A DNA stretch of 64,000 nucleotides from Thysanoteuthis rhombus (taxonomy: Eukaryota > Mollusca > Cephalopoda > Oegopsida > Thysanoteuthidae): assembly GCA_963457665.1 (NCBI GenBank), contig OY735207.1:46896196-46960195 (forward strand), in the 5' to 3' direction. The first letter of the stretch is position 1. Each line of letters begins with the position of its first letter. Below, piece after piece: positions 5,490 through 62,545 of the stretch. The position numbers and the translations under genes were made by a program. Under the pieces are notes generated by a model that was not told where the DNA came from, did not search any database, and saw only the letters and a list, made by a program, of their open reading frames with translations.

Positions 5490-6128
5490 GACAGTTACTG
5501 TCAAGATAGAAGATGCAAAACTCGGCAAGGTAGACCACTACATCTACCTAGGGCAACGAATTTACGTGAGATCCTCAAAAGAGGCGGAAATCAAGCGAAG
5601 AATCACTCTGGGATGGCAAGCCTTCGACAGAGAAAGCTCAACTTCCAAAAACCAGATGATCCTAATAATCCTAAAAAGATTTTTTTTAACCAATGCATCC
5701 TCCCGATAGTCACTTATGGAGTTGAAACATGGAACCTAACCAAGAGACAGACCTGCAAGCTGAGAAGTATGCATCGTGCGCACGAGAGAATCATGCTCAA
5801 CCTTACATGGAGGGACCACAAGACTGTAAAGTATATAAGGAAGAAAACGGGAGTCCCTGACATCATAGACATTATTAAAAAAAACTCAAATTGCAATGGG
5901 CAGGCCATGTTGCAAGAATGAAAGACAACCGATGGACATCACGTCTCACAACATGGATCGCCAGAGATCACATGAGAAACCGAGGCCGACAGAACGCAAG
6001 ATGGAGAGATGAATTAGACAAATTCAGGAAATACTGGCTCCACAACGCCCATGATACAGAACTGTAACGAATCCCAGGGAAGGTCTATGTCCAAAGACAG
6101 ATGTTAAAAGACTGACGATGATGATGTT
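5490..6128 (+). pseudogene. RTE-like retrotransposon 3' end, copy A
   Basis: The encoded protein is the C-terminal part of an RTE-clade endonuclease/reverse transcriptase, downstream of the catalytic palm. Readable words are DHYIYLGQRI, VTYGVETWNLTKRQTCKLR, HERIMLNLTWRDHKT and a degraded TRWRDELDKFRKYW. The frame breaks near 5,680 (T-run) and again near 5,880 (A-run). Close to the end a tryptophan codon has become a stop in the segment that reads EVWRILGK in related copies. The final LKD is followed by TGA and a short GATGATGAT tail. The frame breaks and 5' truncation show it is inactive. Its family membership is well supported by ten sister copies in the window. Confidence 0.88.
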
Positions 6129-6534
6129 GTTATATCAAACTGCTCCACATGCTACAATGTCCAGACCTTGCCAAAAATGCACCTTTGGAATGAGCTCCGC
6201 CCAAGCGATATCAAATGACATTTTCTTTACACTCGTAGTCTTATCGCATCAAGTTGAATATCTATGGGAACAAAAACGTTCAACATTGACTGCTTGCAAG
6301 GAATGCAAACTTTTGTTTACGATATAATATTTCACTCTTCTGACTTTAATACTGCAACATACGCTACAGTTGCTATGTCATTTATGAGTATTGCATCACA
6401 TTTACTTCCCAGTTTAATCATTATCAACTGACTAAATGCACAAACTAACACATCGGAACAAAGATCCAAAGCAAGCGTAGAAATTCTATCCATTTCAACT
6501 CTTGACCCAATCTTCATAACTCAGTGTGCAAGGA

Positions 6535-8250: not shown

Positions 8251-9249
8251 AACAAGGATACACGTAAAGTAAATTTTCGATCTATTTATATAACCGCTGC
8301 TGTTCAAATATTATAAAAAAGATGTTGTAATGAATGTATGATATAATAACATTCAACGCGTTCTTAGTGAGTTTAATAGCTGCGTATTTCCTTCCAGTGC
8401 CAGGGGTATGTGTATGGACGGGATGAAAACAATGATAACAAATACTGGTATACAGAGCAGATTGAGCTGTGTCTATTTGAAAGATTGGCGCAGCGCAATA
8501 ACCCTGTTCCCATTTCCCTGATTCACCTATGCCAATGATGTTAGGAAACGTACATGCATTCACTGGAGTCTGTCCATTTATGCACGCAACATCTCCAATA
8601 GTTCTCTATGAATTATTCTACACCGTTTGGGCCATACGATAAAGAAAATTCGATCATATTAGATCCATGGATTTTTTTTTCGATTGAGGAGAAAAAAATC
8701 ATACATTGAGTGATGTTTGTTTGCACGATATCTAAAACGAAGATCTCCACAATTTTCAATGGCCTCTTGAGGGACCTAGCGCCCTGGGCTAAGGATAAAT
8801 GATTGAATTTTGGGGACAATCCAGGATATTTTTTTTCAATCAACAGACATTTTTCGAATATTAAGAAAAGGTAACCAATGGTCCAAAATATGGAAAATCG
8901 AAACATAGTTACCTGCCCTTTATCGTAGCTATACATGAACAGATTCTTGTTCACTTTTTAGTCAGTGCATAGAGTTTGCAGAAGTATGCAATCTCAATGC
9001 TTTCTAGTTTGACATTTACTATGCCAGGCTTATTAGATACTAGCAAGAATACCCGGTGTTGCCTGGGGGAAATAATTGCAAATATAAATCAAATAAGAAA
9101 GATAAATACAGTTTTGCCAATTCAAGGCGAAAAATGAATTTTATTATTCTAATTTGACACCTAAAAGAAAATGAAACTTACAAAAAAATTGTATCGCCTG
9201 AATTTGAATTCATGGGCAAGAAATGACCCAAAGAATAGATGTGGACGGA

Positions 9250-10020
9250 TTAATTGTTCTGTATCGCCCCCTAGTCAAGAATTAAAAACGAAACTCTTCT
9301 TAGTACAAAGATAGACTGGAGGAAGAATGGTTAAGATCGGATCCGCCAGTGGGTCGGTGAAATGATGACGATCTTATTGAAAAGGAAAGCGAGAGAAAGA
9401 GTAGCCGGCTGCAAACGGTAGGGCAGAGGCATGACCTGCCAGGAGTCCTGGCGCCAATTGCGTATTTATTCACTGTCCCACCACAGCAAAATGTGACACA
9501 AGGTCGAGCTTAACTTGGGGAAAATGGGGACCATCCATCAAAAAATGGCTTCAGTCGACGTGGCTTTGGTTTGGTAAGCAACCAAAGTAACCTCCACCAC
9601 GAAAGCGTCAGGACAAGTCCCAACCTGCTCTGTTAAGTGCAACGGAGCAGTGCTGCTCCGGGGCAACGGATCCCCCGCAGCTGGGCCGAGTAATGATAGG
9701 AGAGCCTAAGGACGAGTCCAAAGGCTCCCAATGCGCGTAACAGTACGCATCCTCAGTAAAACCTCATTGGCTGTAGCACTGCACCACCGCACTCGGTCTT
9801 GATACCACCCACATCTGAATCTCCGGCCCATTCAACAGGCAAGTGTCAGTACCAGCGCCTCAGTCTCTACCATGGAACATATACAACACTTTGATCCTGA
9901 AAAGGTCAGAAAAGGGGGTGCGCGGAGGAGGAAGTGACGTTTTTGATATCTAGCTAAAAGAACAGTTTCGTATTTAATTCTCAACTAAAAGTATAGGGGG
10001 CGCTACAGTTCTAAAGTGAC
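9250..10020 (+). mobile_element. candidate non-autonomous element with inverted ends and GC-rich hairpin core
   Basis: A segment of about 55-60 bp at 9,250-9,312 (containing CGCCCCCTAGTCAAGAATTA and GAAACTCTTCTTAG) is present in inverted form at about 9,947-10,016. Between them lies a GC-richer block (about 9,380-9,860), unlike its AT-rich surroundings, that holds several short perfect hairpins. No open frame of note crosses it. It could be a non-autonomous DNA transposon or foldback element. Alternatively, it could be an unrelated GC-rich insertion, such as a LINE 5' UTR, between two inverted repeat copies. A third copy of the terminal segment lies at 10,262-10,335. Confidence 0.5.
9564..9750 (+). 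other. string of hairpins in GC-rich block
   Basis: Perfect stems seen by eye are: CTTTGGTT (9,564-9,571) with AACCAAAG (9,580-9,587); CGGAGCA (9,643-9,649) with TGCTCCG (9,654-9,660); GGG (9,661-9,663) with the C-run at 9,672-9,676; GAGCCT (9,702-9,707) with AGGCTC (9,722-9,727); and ATGCG (9,731-9,735) with CGCAT (9,746-9,750). This is more than I see in any other 190-bp stretch of the window. Function unknown. Confidence 0.55.
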
Positions 10021-10261
10021 ATCGCAGTTTTTTTTATTATAATCGTGTAGTAAATAGAGCGTTCCCTCTTAAAACCCTCTAACTAATCACTCTGGATTTT
10101 TTTTGCATGCTCTGATCCTGAATATCTTTGGGGTCCCTTTAAAAATCATTTCCGGTTGGAATGCACCATGTTAGAGGAGGGGGCGAACAATAAACGTATA
10201 GAAGACGAACATCATCCACCACAAAAGGTGAGTTGAATTGTTCTTGCTTTACAATCAACCC

Positions 10262-10335
10262 TAAGAATTTGTGGCGACCCCTATATTTCTAGTCAAGAAT
10301 TAGATACAAAACTCCTCTTTTAGTTTGGTATCTTA
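10262..10335 (+). repeat. third copy of the terminal segment
   Basis: It carries GTGGCGACCCCTATATTTCT followed by AGTCAAGAATTAGATAC and AAAACTCCTCTTTTAG, in the same orientation as the copy at 9,250. It lies back to back with the copy at 9,947-10,016. An imperfect direct duplication follows at 10,386 and 10,452 (TCAATCGCTTATTTGGCCCC). Confidence 0.55.
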
Positions 10336-10549
10336 AACTTCACGTCCTAAGATGACCTCCCGATAAAAGCCCTGAGAGCACGCAGTCAATCGCTTATTTG
10401 GCCCCAGCTTTCGAGCCGTTTATCTTATCTTCCTTTCCTTCACGTGCACATGGTCAATCGCTTATTTGGCCCCGCTATCTCGAGCCAGTCACCTTCCCCC
10501 TTTGCCTCTCTCTAAACTCGTGGCAGGCGTGGTTCCTTCTTTGACCGTG

Positions 10550-11268
10550 ACTATGAAGAGAGCAAGAAAGTCGGCCTACACGTGAACTTCAGCAAGACGA
10601 AGATCATGTGCAACAACCACATCGGAGATTTTAAAAAAAACACCAAGATCAAAATCGAGGACACAGAACTGGAGGAAGTTGATCACTACATCTACCTAGG
10701 ATAACGAATCTCCATGAGATCCTCAAAAGAAGAAATCACGCGAAGAATCATACTAGGATGGCAAGTCTTTGGCAGAGCAAGCACAACTTTAAAAAAAAGG
10801 AAGATCCCATTAATCTTAAAAAGAAGGGTGTATAAGCAATGCATCCTCCCAATAATCACTTATGGAGCTGAAACTTGGAACCTAACAAAGAGGCAGATCT
10901 GCAAATTGAGAAATATGCAACATGCACATGAAGGAACTATGCTGGGCCTCACATGGAGAGTCTACAAGACAGCACAGTACATCTGTGAAAAGACGAGAGC
11001 CAGGGACATCATTGAGTCCATCGAAAATCTCATATGGCAGTGGGCTGGCTATGTTGCAAAAATGACGGACAACCGATGGACATCGCGCCTCACGTTATGG
11101 ATCCCCCGAGATCACATGCAGAACCGAGGCCGGCAGGATATAAGATGGAGAGACGAGCTAGACGATTTCAGAGAGTACTGGCTCGGCGACGCCCATGATA
11201 GCGAAGTGTGGCGAATGCTGGGGAAGGTTTATATCCAACGACGGATGTTGAGAGACTGATGATGATGA

Positions 11269-11272
<4 letters not shown>
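10550..11272 (+). pseudogene. RTE-like retrotransposon 3' end, copy B (longest continuous frame)
   Basis: This is the best-preserved RTE fragment, with a continuous frame of 181 codons from 10,714 to 11,259. Upstream of a stop in YLG(stop)RIS, the frame also reads HVNFSKTKIMCNNH, the segment that follows the catalytic FADD in this family. The main frame contains ITYGAETWNLTKRQICKLR, a conserved W of the WAGYVAKM block, DNRWTSRLTLW, and [14 protein letters not shown] near the C-terminus. It stops at TGA in a GATGATGATG tail that runs into (TA)n. The endonuclease domain and most of the RT are missing through 5' truncation. It was once a retrotransposition protein of the RTE clade and is now inactive. 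Confidence 0.92.
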
Positions 11273-11334
<62 letters not shown>

Positions 11335-13659: not shown

Positions 13660-14062
13660 TGTCCACCCGATAGTCACCCATGTAACTACAACATGGAACT
13701 TAGCCAAGAGACTGACCTGCGGACTGAGAATCATGCAACATGCACATGAAAGAATCATGTTCAACATCACACGGAAAGACCACAAAGCAGCACAGTACAT
13801 CGAGGGAAAACATGGATCTGGGACATCATAAAAAACATTAAAAACTCAAATGGCAATTGGCTGGTCATGTTGCAAAAATGGAAGTCAACCGATGTATATC
13901 AGTACTCACAACAGGGATATCAGAGATCAAACACAGTACCGAGGCCGGCAGAATATGAGATAGCGAGACGGACTGGACAGATTCAGAATATATTGGCTCT
14001 GCGATGCCCACAATAGAGTGGTAAAAGTATGTGTCCAACTACGGACAATAACAGAATCGAAT
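13660..14062 (+). pseudogene. RTE-like retrotransposon 3' end, copy C
   Basis: Broken frames keep the order of the family: a VTTWNLAKRLTCGLR-like start, HERIMFN, a WLVMLQKW-like degraded WAGHV block, then the GRQNMR region and a YWLCDAHN match to the YWLRDAHD block. The tail is a poor GATGAT (14,060-14,070). There are several frameshifts and stops. Assignment is by similarity to copies A and B. Confidence 0.8.
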
Positions 14063-24224: not shown

Positions 24225-25085
24225 CTGACACAAGGCTATAAATCTGGAGTATATAGTCGGGTTACATTTACCGAGTTTAATATTATCATCATCATCATCA
24301 TCATCAGTCTTTTAACGTCTGTCGTTGGACATAGACGTTCCCCAAAATTTGCCACACTTCTCTATCATGGGCATCGCGGAGCAAGTACTTTCTGAACTTG
24401 TCTAGCTCGTCTCGCCATCTAATATTCTGCCAGCCCCGGTAGCGCATGTGATTTCGGGGGATCCATGTCGTGGGTCGTGATGTCCATCGGTTGTCTGCCA
24501 TTCACGCAACATGGCTAGCCCACTGCCATTTGAGCTTTTTAATGGATTCTATGATGTCCCTGACTCTTGTCTTTTCTCGAATGTACTGTGCTGTCTTGTG
24601 GTCTCTCAATGTGAGGCCCAGCATTATTATTTCATGTGCAATATATAATTTAATATAAAGGGTACTTAATGAGGTTATGGGGGTACAAGGTTATCAGTGT
24701 GTGGTATCTAGTGGTGTTCTTTTTAAGTAATCTAAGCCAAGTCTGATAGTGATGTTTCGTTTTTACTTTGCTCAGTTTGATATGATTCAAGGCTACAAAT
24801 GTTGAACATCAAATGAGGTTGTTTATTGAGCTTAGTGTAGCACATCTATTGGAGCGAAGCACTGAATGAGGTTATTGATTCAGGTCGCCTTAGTCTGGCA
24901 CAATAACACAGCAGTAATGCGCCAAGTCAGGATCGAACTCACTACAGATATTTGATAAACTTAGTTTAAAATCGCAGAGGCTGTGAGCGTAGGGCACTTA
25001 GTGAGGATCGGACTCGTTGAGGTAGAAAGAGTCTGCAAGGCTTGCTTGCTAATCGACATTTCACGGCAAAGCTCCAAGTGTCGGA
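24225..25085 (-). repeat. clustered tRNA-derived SINE modules (minus orientation)
   Basis: Several diverged modules lie on the minus strand. B-box-like phrases appear on the plus strand as AGGATCGAACTCAC (24,931) and GAGGATCGGACTCG (25,006), with weaker AATGAGG relics at 24,670, 24,815 and 24,866. A head TTAGCAAGCAAGCCTTGCAG ends the cluster at about 25,050. The TAGTCTGGCACAA body phrase is also present. The RTE fragment at 24,283-24,630 lies inside the cluster. Confidence 0.6.
24283..24630 (-). pseudogene. RTE-like retrotransposon 3' end, copy D
   Basis: On the minus strand, a frame of 65 codons reads DNRWTSRPTTWIPRNHMRYR, then RWRDELDKFRKYLLRDAHD, EVWQILGNVYVQRQ and LKD before TGA and a (GAT)n tail (24,283-24,306). 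Upstream, the WAGHVA-like and EKTRVRDIIESI blocks are readable in another frame. The 5' part is missing. Confidence 0.88.
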
Positions 25086-39539: not shown

Positions 39540-39877
39540 GCTGGTTATGCAACGTGCGCATGAGAGAATCATGCTCAACCTTACATGGAGAGATCACAAG
39601 ACAGTACAGTATATAAGGAAGAAAACAGGTGTCCGTGACATCATAGAAACTATTAAAAAAAAACTCAAATGGCAATGGGCAGGCCATGTTGCAAAAATGA
39701 AAGACAACCAATGGACATCACGTCTCCCCAGAGATTACATGAGAAACTGAGGCCGACAGAACACAAGAAAGAGATGAACTGGACAGATTCAGGAAATACT
39801 GGCTCTGCGACGCTCATGATAGAGAATTCAGGGGAATCCTGGGGAAGGTCTATGTCCAACGACGGAAGTTAGAAGAC

Positions 39878-39924
<47 letters not shown>
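39540..39924 (+). pseudogene. RTE-like retrotransposon 3' end, copy F
   Basis: It is short but little diverged. QRAHERIMLNLTWRDHKTVQ, IRKKTGVRDIIETIKKK, KWQWAGHVAKMKDNQWTSRL, then a small deletion that removes the TTWIP segment, and broken frames for RDELDRFRKYWLCDAHD. It ends EDTGA-like into a long (GAT)n (39,878-39,923). It is very similar to copy A over the shared part. Confidence 0.9.
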
Positions 39925-40564: not shown

Positions 40565-41205
40565 TTCAGATGTCAAAGACTCTAGAATTAGAATTGAAAA
40601 CGCAGAGCTGAATGAAGCAGACGACTAGATTTACCCAGGGAAACAAATCTCCACGAAATCTCCGAAATGAAGGAAATCAAGCGAACAATCACTCTAGGCT
40701 TGCAAGTCATCGGTAGAACAAGTTCAACCTTCAAAGACAAGAAAATATCACGTCCGAAAAGAAGGGTGCTCAACCAGTGCAGCCTTCCGATGATAACTTA
40801 CAGAGCTGAAACATGGAACCTAACCAAAAGATTGACCCTCTAGCTGAGAACTGTGCAACGGGCAAGCGAGAAAATCATGCTCAGCATCACGCGGAGAGAT
40901 CACAAGACAGTAAAATATATTTGAAGATATGAGTGAGCGATATCAGAGAATCCGTAAGGAAACTAAAATTGCAATGGGCTTGTCACGCAGCAAGAATATC
41001 AGACAACCGCTGGACACCACGACTAATAACATAGATCCCCAGAGATCATATACAAAACTGTTGCCCGCAGGAAGTTAGATGGTGTTACGAGTTCAGGATG
41101 TCCTGGCTCCGCGACGCCCACGATGGGAAGGTCTGGTGAATCTAGCAGAAGGACTATATCCAATGGCGGACGCTAAAAGGCTGCTGCTACTGCTGCTGAT
41201 GAATC
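40565..41205 (+). pseudogene. RTE-like retrotransposon 3' end, copy G
   Basis: Broken frames in family order: RIENAELNEADD, a YPGKQIST block, EIKRTITLGLQVIGRTSSTF, ITYRAETWNLTKRL, ERASEKIMLSITRRDHKT, NRWTPRL and FRMSWLRDAHDGKVW. The tail is CTGCTGCTACTGCTGCTGAT rather than (GAT)n. Several stops. Confidence 0.82.
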
Positions 41206-45821: not shown

Positions 45822-47334
45822 TCGCTTAACAGAATCCTGAAAAACAGCAAAGGATACCACTTCTCTAAAACAAAAGGAAAGGTCAACCACTTAATGTACA
45901 TGGACGATATTAAATTGTTTGCAAAAAACAGGGGAGAGCTTGAGACTCTGTTCAACGAAGTGAGGGAATATAGTGAGGACATAGGAATGGAGTTTGGGAT
46001 AGAAAAATGCGCAATCATGGTGATGCATAAAGGAAGGCTTTCAATGACTGAGGGAATTGAACTTCCGGACAACAACAAGATTAGGGCATTGACTGCACAA
46101 GACCGATACAAGTACCTAGGTGTCCTTGAATGTGACACGATAAAACGGGAAGAGATGAAGGAGAAAATTAAGAGAGAATACCTCAGAAGGATAAGGAAAA
46201 TATTAGAAACCAAATTAAATAGCAGAAATCTAATAAAAGGAATGAACACCTGGGCTGTGTCAGTAGTTAGGTATACAGGACCATTCCTAGGATGGACAAA
46301 GGAAGAGCTCCAATCAATGGATAGGCGAACAAGGAAACTTATGACGATGCATAAAGCATTACACCCTAGGGATGATACAGATAGGCTATACGTTAAGAGA
46401 AAAGAAGGTGGTAGGGGGCTCATCAGCATAGAAGATTGTGTTCAGAGAGCTAAAGTAGTCCTAGATAGATATGTGCAAACAAATAGTGAAGAAATCATAA
46501 AGAGCGCGAGGGATAGTGCAACAAACAATAAAGTAGAAAACAATGGAACAGTACAGCAAACTAGAAAAGAAAAGTGGGAAGGGAAAAAATTGTACGGCGA
46601 GTTTAAAAGACAGATAAAAGATATAGCAGACGAGAAATCATGGACGTGGTTACGAAAGGGAAACCTTAAGAGAGAAACAGAATCGCTCATCATGGCAGCC
46701 CAAAACAAAAGCATAAGGACAAACTACATAAAAGCAAAAATCGACAGAACACAGACAAACAGCAAATGCCGCATGTGCGGTGAAAGAGATGAGACAGTAA
46801 ACCACATAACTAGTGAATGTAGCCAACTCGCCCAGAAGGAGTATAAGCATAGACACGATAGAGTAGCAACAATGATACACTGGGAACTAAGTAAACAAAT
46901 GGGATTCAACCATGGGGAAAAGTGGTATCAGCACAAGCCAGAGGCAGTTTTGGAGAATGACAACCACAAACTACTGTGGGACTTTGACATCCAAACTGAC
47001 CACCTCATCCAGGCAAGAAGGCCGGACTTAGTAATAGTAGACAAAAAAAAAGAAGGCCTGCCAAATAGTAGACGTTGCTGTACCTGCAGACCATAGAGTA
47101 AAAAAGAAGGAGGGTGAAAAAAGGGAAAAATACCAGGACGTAGCAAGGGAGTCAAAGAAAATGTGGAACATGAAAACCAGGGTAGTACCGGTCATAGTGG
47201 GAGCACTAGGAACTGTCCCCAAAACGCTGAGGGAGAGACTGGAGGAGATCGGGATTAGGGGGAGGATAGAGACCGTACAGACCACAGCACTGCTGGGAAC
47301 TGCACGGATACTGAGGAAGGTGCTAGAGATATAA
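45822..47334 (+). pseudogene. R4/Dong-like retrotransposon, best copy (RT end, zinc finger, endonuclease)
   Basis: The frame is open from the (AAT)n border. The ATG at 45,894 gives 400 codons. The YMDD catalytic motif of the reverse transcriptase is at residues 2-5, preceded in frame by LNRILKNSKGYHFSKTKG. Next come LGVLECDTIKREEMKEKI and RYTGPFLGW. The DDTDRLYVKRKEGGRGLISI segment at about residues 163-182 is typical of this clade. A CCHC finger follows (C292, C295, H304, C309). The restriction-like endonuclease begins with RPDLVIVDKK (residues 376-385). One extra base in the A9 run 47,043-47,051 shifts the frame. In the next frame the domain continues with IVDVAVPADHRV, KMWNMKTRVVPVIVGALGTV and a final ARILRKVLEI before TAA at 47,332-47,334. 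Everything upstream of the RT palm is missing. Such elements insert by target-primed reverse transcription. With truncation and one frameshift this copy is inactive but clearly young. Confidence 0.93.
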
Positions 47335-49990: not shown

Positions 49991-50009
49991 TTCAAAAAGG
50001 TAGGCTTTC

Positions 50010-50690
50010 ACATAAAATTCAGTAAAACCAATACCATGTGTAACAGATATGTTGAGGACAAAGACACACTGATCAAAATCGAAAGCGCAGGGATTACGAA
50101 GGTAGATGACTACGTCTACTGAAGACAGAAAATCCCCATGAAATTCTCAAAAGGATAAGAAATCAAACAAAGAATCACTCTTGATTGGCAGGCTTTTGGA
50201 AGAGAAAGCTCTACATTCAAGAGCATGAAAATACTATTAGTTTTGAAAAGAAGGTTTTACTACCATGCGTCATCCCAATAGTCACCTACGGAGCTGAAAC
50301 ATGGAACCTAATCAAAAGACTGACTCTCAACCTAAGAACCCTATAGCATGCACGAGAAAGGATCATATCTGACATCGAACGGAGGGATTATAAGACGGCA
50401 TGGCTAATTAGAGAAATTCATTTGAAAATTCAAATGGCAATGGGAGAGGCCATGTTGCAAGGATGACTGACAACGTAGATCCCCAAGATCGTATGCAAAA
50501 TTGTGGCCGGGAAAAAAACAAAAACAAGATGGCGTTCAGAAATTCCTGACTCCCCAACGAGCACGACCAAAAGGTCTGGCGAATCTTCGGGAAGGTTCAT
50601 GTCGAACAACAGATGTTGAAAGTCTACTTTTGCTACTGTTGATGATGATGGTGATGATGATGATGATGATGATGGCGGTGGTGATGGTTA
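50010..50690 (+). pseudogene. RTE-like retrotransposon 3' end, copy H
   Basis: Starts at GFHIKFSKTNTMCNRY, the segment after the RT palm. Next come IKIESAGITKVDDYVY, EIKQRITLDWQAFGRESSTF, VTYGAETWNLIKRLTLNLR, a degraded ERIISDIERRDYKT and QMAMGEAMLQG (shifted WAGHV). The last blocks are badly broken. The end is GTTGATGATGATGGTGATGA and more GAT/GGT units (50,640-50,690). Confidence 0.82.
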
Positions 50691-51520: not shown

Positions 51521-51654
51521 ATTTCCTGAGGACGTATGCACCTGTTCATTTTATTCAAGAATAAAACACATTCGATTTGAGCCAGGATTCGTACATTCCA
51601 TTATTAAGGTTATAATTCTTCCTTTCCTTCACTTATTTGAATAGAATCCTTTCA

Positions 51655-52000
51655 TCATCATCATCATCATCGTCAGCAGCAGCAGCAGCAGCAGCAGCGT
51701 TTTAACGTCTGTCGTTGGACCTTCTCAAAGATTCGCCAGACCTCTTGATCCTAGGCGTTTCGGTTCCAATATCTCTGAAACCTATAATAAGTCGTCACGA
51801 CATCTTATTTTCTGCCGGTCACACTTTTGGATATGATCTGTCGAGATTCACGTTGTGAGTCGAGATGTAGAGCGATTGTCTCTCATTCTTGCAACATGGC
51901 CTGCCCATTGCCATTTGAGTTCTTCCAATTGATTTTTATGATATCTCTGACATATTTTTTCTTCAATATATTGTACTGTCTCGTGATCTCTCCATGTAAT
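51655..52000 (-). pseudogene. RTE-like retrotransposon 3' end, copy I
   Basis: On the minus strand the order is YITWRDHETVQYI, the ISEIS/IKINWK region, QMAMGRPCCKNE (shifted WAGHV), DNRSTSR and the final GPTTDVKTL-like end. The tail on the plus strand is CATCATCATC followed by a CAG run, so a mixed (GAT)n/(CTG)n tail. Confidence 0.82.
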
Positions 52001-53764: not shown

Positions 53765-54440
53765 AAATGAATCAGAATAGACAGCGAACATCTGAGCAAC
53801 ATTAGATTTGCTGACGACATCACCACTTTTGAGGTGAACCTACACGGCCTCCAACTGAGGCTAGATGAACAAAATGAAGAAGGCAAGAAAGTCGGCCGAC
53901 ACTTGAACTTCTACAAAAAAAAGGTCATGTGCAACAATCATGTCAGAAGTAAGAACAAAACAATCAAAACTGAAGATGCAGAACTAGATGAAACAAGACG
54001 ATCCCATTGGTCCTGAGAAGATGGGTATACAACTAATTCATCTTCCCGATAATCACTTATGGGGCTGAAACATGGAACCTGGCCAAGAGACTGACCTGCA
54101 GACTGAGAAACATGCAACGTGCATATGAAAGCTCACAATGCACCACTGTATCAGGTAGAAAACAGTAGTCTGAGACATCATATAATCCACTATAAAACTC
54201 AAATGGCAATGGGCTGCTCATATTGCAAGAATGACAGATAACCGATGAACGCTTCAACTCATAACATATATCCCTGGAAATTGCCTGAGCAACTGAGGCC
54301 GGCAGAATACAAGATGGAGAGACGAATTAGAAAAATTCTGAAAATATTGGCGCTGCAACGCCCACGAAAGAGAGGTATGGCAAATCTTAGGAGAGGTCTT
54401 TGTCCAATGTCAGACGTTAAAAGGCGGATGCTGCTGACTG
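53765..54440 (+). pseudogene. RTE-like retrotransposon, copy J, keeps the FADD motif
   Basis: This is the only RTE copy here with an intact catalytic motif: GIRIDSEHLSNIRFADDITT, then LHGLQLRLDEQNEEGKKVGR, HLNFYKKKVMCNNHV and TIKTEDAELDE. About 130 bp are then missing. The frame resumes in another register at IPLVLRRWVYN, and continues FPIITYGAETWNLAKRL, the HVARMTDNR region (with a stop in place of W), then RDELEKF(stop)KYWRCNAHE. It ends in GCTGCTGACTG with no long tail. Confidence 0.85.
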
Positions 54441-54812
54441 TCAATTAGTCTCCATCGATGACCATCATACCTCCTCGGGGGAAACATGCAAACGCACGTA
54501 ATAATAATAAAAAGGGTGTCGACAAAATTCTAGGTAGAATACCAGGAAATCCAAGCATCCAAGAGACATGGAAAAATTGTCCCCACGGGCACCACCCATG
54601 TCCTTTGCAAAGCACTTCCCAAGTAAATATTTTGTCTAAATTTTGAATGTCTGTTATACAACAATTTGCTGTTTCTTGTACAAGCTCCTGTATTGTCCTG
54701 TGTATTGATACCCCATTGATATGTATGGAATGAAATGAAAAGTTTCAGTGCCTACTAGGTTATTTCATCGTTGCCTGCCCTATGTTTCAAGCTAAATTCT
54801 ATTAGACAAGAA

Positions 54813-62316: not shown

Positions 62317-62545
62317 GAATCATCAGTCTTTTTACGTCTGCCATTGGGCATAGACCTTCCCCAGGGCTCGCCACAACTCTCTACCATGGGCGTCGCAGAA
62401 CCAGTATTTCCTAAATCAGTCTAGTTCATCACTCCAACTCGTGTTTTGTTGGCCTCAGTTTCGCATGTGATCTCTGGGGATCCATTTTGGGAGACGTGAT
62501 GTCCATCGGTTGTCTTGCAACATGGCCTCCCCATTGCAATGGTTC
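62317..62545 (-). pseudogene. RTE-like retrotransposon 3' end, copy K
   Basis: On the minus strand: the QWGGHVAR-like block, a TDGHHVSQNGSPEITCETEA frame (shifted DNRWTSR...DHM), then WRDELD, FRKYWFCDAH and RVVASPGEGLCPMADVKR. It ends in TGATGAT without a long tail. Only about 230 bp remain. Confidence 0.82.

What the first reader, a model, noticed from the sequence alone, without database searches (positions are those of the whole stretch)
9250..10020. Inverted terminal segments around a GC-rich block with a chain of hairpins
Segments of about 55-60 bp in opposite orientation bracket about 650 bp whose core is much richer in GC than its surroundings and holds at least five short perfect stems. 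It could be an undescribed non-autonomous transposon carrying a structured RNA.
Basis: partly seen in the sequence, partly recalled or inferred. Interest (0 to 1): 0.7.

Follow-up and report, generated by a model that had tools for sequence, protein, structure and literature searches.

The report
Transposon carrying a second mobile element
A 748-base DNA-transposon-like element in a large animal-like genome carries inside it a copy of a different, much-repeated, hairpin-rich mobile element, so the "structured core" is more likely a passenger than an RNA gene of the transposon.

Summary
Window 9260-10007 (748 bp) starts TGT, ends ACA, has inverted ends of about 42-50 nt and lies between two copies of GTTC. 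It is 49.5% GC in a 36.6% GC window and holds six short perfect stems where 1.2 are expected. The reading is half right. A second complete copy (L010, 863 bp) has 77-bp inverted ends (90%) and its own 4-bp duplication (CGTA), so this is a non-autonomous inverted-repeat element. The GC-rich core (9462-9913) is a different repeat: 25 of 30 fetched genomic loci hold it without the host, and 10 of 15 single core-only copies have 11-19 bp direct repeats at their flanks, as a SINE-like retroposon would. The hairpins belong to that retroposon. So this is a composite, like the mammalian MER6 MITE with its V-SINE. A longer host form (about 1.4 kb) shares the right end but has another left end, no inverted repeat and no duplication; an LTR origin of the host stays open. 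Ends and duplication length resemble Ginger elements, but Ginger target preferences were not met. The genome server answered two searches only, so copy numbers, an autonomous partner and empty sites were not obtained.

The parts
9256..9259 (.). left 4-bp target-site duplication GTTC
   Evidence: identical to 10008-10011 exactly at the TGT/ACA ends
9260..9301 (+). left terminal inverted repeat, TGTATCGCCCCCTA...
   Evidence: inverted match to 9958-10007; 0 of 20,000 background pairs score as high
9300..9461 (+). left interior of the host element, itself a repeat module
   Evidence: tested as 9300-9455: 39 scored places besides itself at 81-84% identity, 31 of the 39 starting at query base 41 (window 9300); 2101 first-look candidates, 40 scored
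9462..9913 (+). SINE-like retroposon copy (the GC-rich core)
   Evidence: recurring edges near element bases 203 and 654 in genome copies; flanking duplications in core-only copies; alignment of 27 copies
9564..9587 (.). perfect 8-bp stem in the core
9625..9660 (.). two overlapping stems (6 and 7 bp) in the core
9702..9727 (.). 6-bp stem enclosing GGACGAGTCC in the core
9438..9452 (.). 6-bp stem GCCAGGAGTCCTGGC, in the host part just left of the core
9914..9928 (+). short right interior of the host, shortened relative to L010, L012 and L016
   Evidence: comparison by eye output
9929..10007 (-). right terminal segment, TGTAGCGCCCCCTATA... read on the minus strand
   Evidence: 79-nt match to 10270-10348; same end in L010, L012, L015, L016
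10008..10011 (.). right 4-bp target-site duplication GTTC
10270..10350 (+). third, solo end of the same host family, facing right, without the core
   Evidence: BLAST boundary exactly at TGT; profile E 8.3e-24, but the profile was built from this end and the right end

Best explanation
A composite mobile element. The host is a non-autonomous element with ends TGT...ACA, inverted repeats of about 50-77 bp and 4-bp target-site duplications; a transposase or integrase supplied by an unseen partner most likely inserted it by a 4-bp staggered cut (inferred). Its passenger is a SINE-like retroposon of about 450 bp that copies itself elsewhere through RNA and a LINE's reverse transcriptase (inferred from 11-19 bp variable duplications). 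The retroposon landed in an ancestor of the host near GCTGGCGCCAATGAG, and host and passenger were then multiplied together (inferred). The hairpins are the retroposon's own fold, not a device of the transposon.
For: 4-bp duplications at the ends of 2 of 2 complete TIR-form copies: window GTTC and L010 CGTA, the latter if its outermost bases (CGT...ACT) are mutated TGT...ACA. L010's own inverted ends: 77 bp, 90%; its left end matches the window's right end over 77 bp at 94%. 5 of 30 fetched loci hold host and core in the same order (L008, L010, L012, L015, L016). Core without host in 25 of 30 loci. Direct repeats of 11-19 bp, score 8.5 or more, at 10 of 15 single core-only copies against 8 of 210 mismatched flank pairs. 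In L016 the core lies between ACCGGCGCCAATGGAG and ACCGGCGCCATTGAGC inside the host, read by eye. Folding z averages -2.90 and -2.98 on the two strands over 27 core copies.
Against: The cores of the 5 composites do not form a clade (4 changes on the tree, shuffled mean 4.8; 3 of 31 inner branches well supported), which a single insertion would predict. 0 of 3 long host forms show a 4-bp duplication at the boundary I could set or an inverted repeat between their ends. 5 of 15 single core-only copies show no duplication; in a cruder test with longer flanks and 60 single-base shuffles a locus, only 5 of 30 loci beat every shuffle, L025 by its tandem neighbour. No promoter, tail or LINE partner of the retroposon was shown. 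Only the best 40 of 10,127 first-look candidates were scored.
Confidence: 0.72

Rival explanations
1. The host is derived from an LTR retroelement: the long form (TGTGATGAT... to ...CTACA, about 1.4 kb with the core) is a solo LTR, and the window copy's left end is an inverted copy of the LTR's 3' end.
For: L012 and L015 share a sharp left edge at TGTGATG and the same right end, and L012, L015 and L016 have no inverted repeat between their ends. Bao et al. suggest that Ginger1 inverted repeats may have come from LTRs in opposite orientation (PMC2836005, passage).
Against: No 4-bp duplication at L012 or L015. No gag or pol seen, but the look was narrow: frames in the first 1500 bases of L012, L015 and L016, six of them scanned in Pfam with nothing above cut-off; the far side was not examined and paired LTRs could not be sought. 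50-77 bp inverted ends with 4-bp duplications in two copies are not LTR features.
Confidence: 0.15
2. One reading: one transposon that carries its own structured RNA, from which the core-only copies later escaped.
For: The core folds better than shuffles; composite cores are scattered among core-only copies on the tree, as expected if composites were sources.
Against: Core-only copies have common edges and 11-19 bp duplications of their own; 6 of 30 loci have the core behind a quite different upstream sequence; covariation term only -1.11 of -41.28 kcal/mol, structure conservation index 0.31 and 0.28.
Confidence: 0.1
3. Chance: unrelated AT-rich segments that happen to be inverted.
For: The left arm is short and gapped; the genome is repeat-rich.
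Against: 0 of 20,000 background pairs score as high; the same arrangement in L010 with 77-bp ends.
Confidence: 0.02

Closest known systems
MER6/MER6A, Tc1/mariner MITE of mammals with a V-SINE inside (PMC6887750; abstract and passages seen)
   Same: Short non-coding inverted-repeat element with a SINE inserted in its interior; host and SINE multiplied together; internal-deletion variants.
   Different: MER6 has 24-bp inverted repeats and TA duplications; here 50-77 bp and 4-bp duplications. The core is not shown to be a V domain, and core-only copies are many in the same genome, whereas V-SINEs are absent from amniotes.
Ginger1 / Ginger2 DNA transposons (PMC2836005; passages seen)
   Same: TGT...ACA-type ends, inverted repeats of tens of bp, 4-bp duplications.
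   Different: Duplications GTTC and CGTA instead of CCGG/CCGT (Ginger1) or AT-rich RTATAY targets (Ginger2); left end TGTAT departs from TGTNR; no transposase seen.
IS481EU (PMC10045372; passages seen)
   Same: TNT..AYA or TGT..ACA ends and, in part, 4-bp duplications.
   Different: Reported there from parabasalids; inverted repeats mostly under 50 bp; many copies with about 15-bp duplications.
SINEs in general (definition recalled)
   Same: Non-coding repeat of about 450 bp, many copies, variable 11-19 bp duplications.
   Different: No Pol III head proven in the core itself; 3' tail and LINE partner unknown.

Membership tests
Non-autonomous inverted-repeat DNA transposon (MITE-like) | terminal inverted repeats | tested here: met
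   window about 42-50 nt, L010 77 nt at 90%; not in the 3 long forms
Non-autonomous inverted-repeat DNA transposon (MITE-like) | target-site duplication of fixed length | tested here: met
   4 bp in 2 of 2 complete TIR-form copies, L010 with mutated outer bases; 0 of 3 long forms
Non-autonomous inverted-repeat DNA transposon (MITE-like) | no coding capacity | tested here: met
   longest stop-to-stop frame overlapping the element 69 aa; 8 of 23 listed frames scanned against Pfam, one sub-threshold match (E 0.022, 15.2 bits, cut-off 25)
Non-autonomous inverted-repeat DNA transposon (MITE-like) | autonomous partner with the same ends | not tested
   end searches not answered (and later)
Ginger1 | CCGG or CCGT target duplication | tested here: not met
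   GTTC, CGTA in two copies against PMC2836005
Ginger1 | TGTNR terminus | tested here: inconclusive
   right TGTAG and third end TGTGG fit, left TGTAT does not
Ginger1 | Gypsy-integrase-like transposase | not tested
   no autonomous copy obtained
Ginger2 | AT-rich RTATAY target | tested here: not met
   GTTC, CGTA in two copies
SINE (core) | variable-length target-site duplications | tested here: met
   11-19 bp in 10 of 15 single copies; weaker in the cruder test
SINE (core) | Pol III-type head | tested here: inconclusive
   0 tRNA genes in the window; 6 of 30 loci share an upstream stretch with a GGTTTCGATCC-like B-box (motif recalled); the 15 single copies start without it
SINE (core) | 3' end shared with a LINE | not tested
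   no LINE library on hand
LTR (long host form) | TG...CA ends with a 4-6 bp duplication | tested here: not met
   ends fit in L015; no duplication in L012, L015, L016 at the boundary set

The most novel reading that the evidence does not exclude
The host family may show an LTR-like element in the act of becoming an inverted-repeat transposon: the long form has unlike ends, while the window copy, L010 and a partial copy in L016 have an inverted copy of the 3' end on the left and, in the two complete ones, 4-bp duplications. That would be a living example of the LTR-to-TIR route that Bao et al. only proposed for Ginger1.
Probability: 0.1. Interest if true: 0.6.

Novelty: new member of a known kind. 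Interest (0 to 1): 0.28.

Why it matters
It shows how a retroposon can spread by riding on a DNA-transposon-like element, as described for MER6, here in a genome where the retroposon is also common on its own, so the two ways of spreading can be compared directly. It also warns that a GC-rich block with hairpins inside an inverted-repeat element need not be a functional RNA.

Tried and rejected
Rfam: no match in the window at gathering scores; for 9200-10100 one chance-level match (13.7 bits, gathering 80, E 4.4). Phage and plasmid collections: one chance-level match (E 0.8) and none. Viral contigs: two specific patterns gave 0 loci; a 16-base end pattern gave 7 loci, which I took for chance and did not study. 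Pfam on 8 of 23 listed frames of the element and one LINE frame: nothing above cut-off; six frames of the long-form loci: one sub-threshold match (DUF4560, E 0.011, 16 bits, cut-off 27). Papers with literal pieces of the sequence: GCGCCCCCTA gave 9 papers whose titles have no bearing on transposons; five longer pieces gave 0 papers. Clade test of composite cores: no clade. A 13-nt repeat at 9889/10110 was taken for chance.

Covariation: RNAalifold on 27 copies gave 59 pairs, 12 with some two-sided change, covariation term -1.11 kcal/mol; column shuffles (454 of 491 columns, 40 shuffles each) gave z -4.21 (plus) and -2.48 (minus), with a structure conservation index of 0.31 and 0.28. I read this as inherited hairpins, not as a maintained RNA.

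Full report
What is there. The inverted segments exist and are not chance. The best ends are 9260 (TGTATCGCCCCC...) and 10007 (...GGGGGCGCTACA), 748 bp; a third end at 10270-10348 matches the right end over 79 nt at 78% with its edge exactly at TGT. The inverted match scores 49, above all of 20,000 sampled window pairs at the same spacing. At these ends the flanks are identical for a length of 4 and for no other length from 2 to 11: GTTC/GTTC. The element is 49.5% GC against 36.6% for the window, and 9310-9929 holds 6 perfect stems against a mean of 1.21 in 300 shuffles, none of which reaches 6. The minus strand of 9530-9800 folds at z -4.47, the plus strand at -1.92. In a coarser scan (200-nt windows, 20 shuffles each) the core's best window has z -4.46 and 15 of 426 background windows lie as low or lower; 14 of these 15 overlap a simple repeat.

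Setting. The window is repeat-rich: fragments of a LINE resembling RTE elements (assignment recalled) and many microsatellites. Its genome has 2,731,506,558 bases in 514 contigs and is unnamed. A cephalopod such as an octopus is my guess from repeat style and genome size; no call shows it.

Genome copies. Two searches of the own genome were answered. With the whole unit: 10,127 first-look candidates, the best 40 scored, 58 matches, 30 loci fetched. Most listed matches lie within about query bases 213-673, that is the core at window 9462-9913. Of the 30 loci, 5 (L008 = window, L010, L012, L015, L016) hold host sequence as well, and 25 hold the core without it in about 1.5 kb on either side. With 9260-9455: 2101 candidates, 40 scored, 39 besides the window itself, at 81-84% (no loci were cut). 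Counts are biased, since only top-scoring places were returned.

The core is its own mobile element. Its edges recur. For 15 single core-only copies I compared the flanks: 10 of 15 have direct repeats scoring 8.5 or more, 11-19 bp long (L014, L019, L020, L022, L029, L030, L031, L034, L035, L036), against 8 of 210 mismatched pairs. A cruder test with longer flanks and 60 single-base shuffles a locus found only 5 of 30 loci above every shuffle (L014, L025, L029, L030, L035). Variable duplications of this size are what LINE-driven retroposition leaves (established knowledge). Some copies stand in head-to-tail rows (L025, L026, L027, L032). Six of 30 loci (L021, L027, L028, L032, L033, L037) share another upstream stretch with a B-box-like motif (motif recalled). 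Twenty-seven copies align with 82% mean column identity.

The hairpins belong to the core. Over the 27 copies the folding z averages -2.90 (plus) and -2.98 (minus), 20 shuffles each; 17 and 19 of 27 are below -2; the window copy is weaker than average at -1.03 and -2.61. The consensus fold has little covariation and a low conservation index, although it beats column shuffles. In the alignment, L020, L022, L023 and L031 (and, decayed, L017) replace GGAGAGCC...GGCTCCC by a shorter GGGAACC...GGTTCCC-like hairpin, by eye: a hint that a hairpin there was kept, from one subfamily only. One stem, 9438-9452, lies in the host part, not in the core.

The host. L010 is 863 bp between CGTA and CGTA if its outermost bases (CGT...ACT) are mutated TGT...ACA; its own ends are inverted over 77 bp at 90%. 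A partial copy in L016 has the left end too, but its right end lies outside the locus. L012, L015 and L016 are a longer form of about 1.36-1.46 kb: same right end, another left part beginning near TGTGATGATATTGATGG in L012 and L015, no inverted repeat between the ends, no 4-bp duplication. The window copy's left end joins the shared interior at a different point than L016's partial copy (by eye), as internal-deletion derivatives of a longer element would. In L016 the core lies between ACCGGCGCCAATGGAG and ACCGGCGCCATTGAGC within the host (by eye), which looks like the duplication made when the core entered the host. In the window copy the right host part is shortened, so this mark is lost.

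Results against this reading. The five composite cores do not form a clade. The tree is star-like with 3 of 31 inner branches well supported, so one insertion is not excluded, but repeated insertions, gene conversion, or core-only copies derived from composites remain possible. The long form shows neither inverted repeat nor duplication. Five of 15 single core-only copies show no duplication.

Mechanism. Shown: two mobile-element families, one inside the other, each with its own kind of flanking duplication. Inferred: the retroposon is made by reverse transcription of an RNA by a LINE; the host is moved by an enzyme supplied in trans that cuts the target with a 4-bp stagger; the passenger multiplied with the host. 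Ends and duplication length resemble integrase-type elements (Ginger, IS481EU), but Ginger target preferences are not met, so I do not file it there.

Compared with what is known. The closest case is MER6, a mammalian MITE with a V-SINE inside (PMC6887750, abstract and passages). Searches of the held library by sequence pieces and by topic showed, in their listings, no account of this family; a 2026 repeat annotation of Octopus vulgaris lists unclassified TIR, MITE and SINE families without sequences in the passages I saw (PMC13282606), so if the organism is an octopus the parts may be in such a library already.

Noticed in passing
window 10270-10550: A solo end of the same host family faces right and runs into another GC-rich stretch with a 33-nt direct repeat (10385-10417, 10453-10486), then a LINE fragment; its other end was not found in the window.
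   Followed up: partly
window 5501-6135, 10553-11280, 13662-14018, 24274-24640, 39546-39902, 40592-41186, 49993-50396, 51652-51999, 53874-54442, 62319-62540: At least ten fragments of one LINE family in both orientations, several ending in TGA or TA repeats.
   Followed up: no
window 45894-47096: Open frame of 400 aa with reverse-transcriptase and zf-RVT similarity, both below Pfam's cut-offs: a second LINE type.
   Followed up: no
L027, G000:C7:20578171-20579731: About three and a half head-to-tail copies of the core with 73-83% identity to the window copy: the retroposon also forms small tandem rows.
   Followed up: partly
L021, L027, L028, L032, L033, L037: The core sits behind a shared upstream sequence of at least 150 nt with a tRNA-like B-box motif: another context for the same core.
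   Followed up: partly
L010, element bases 136-308: Besides its inverted ends this copy holds an internal palindrome of about 176 nt, 85% self-complementary, left of the core.
   Followed up: no
window 9190-9198: TGTATCGCC, the first nine bases of the element's left end, also occurs 70 bases upstream of it.
   Followed up: no
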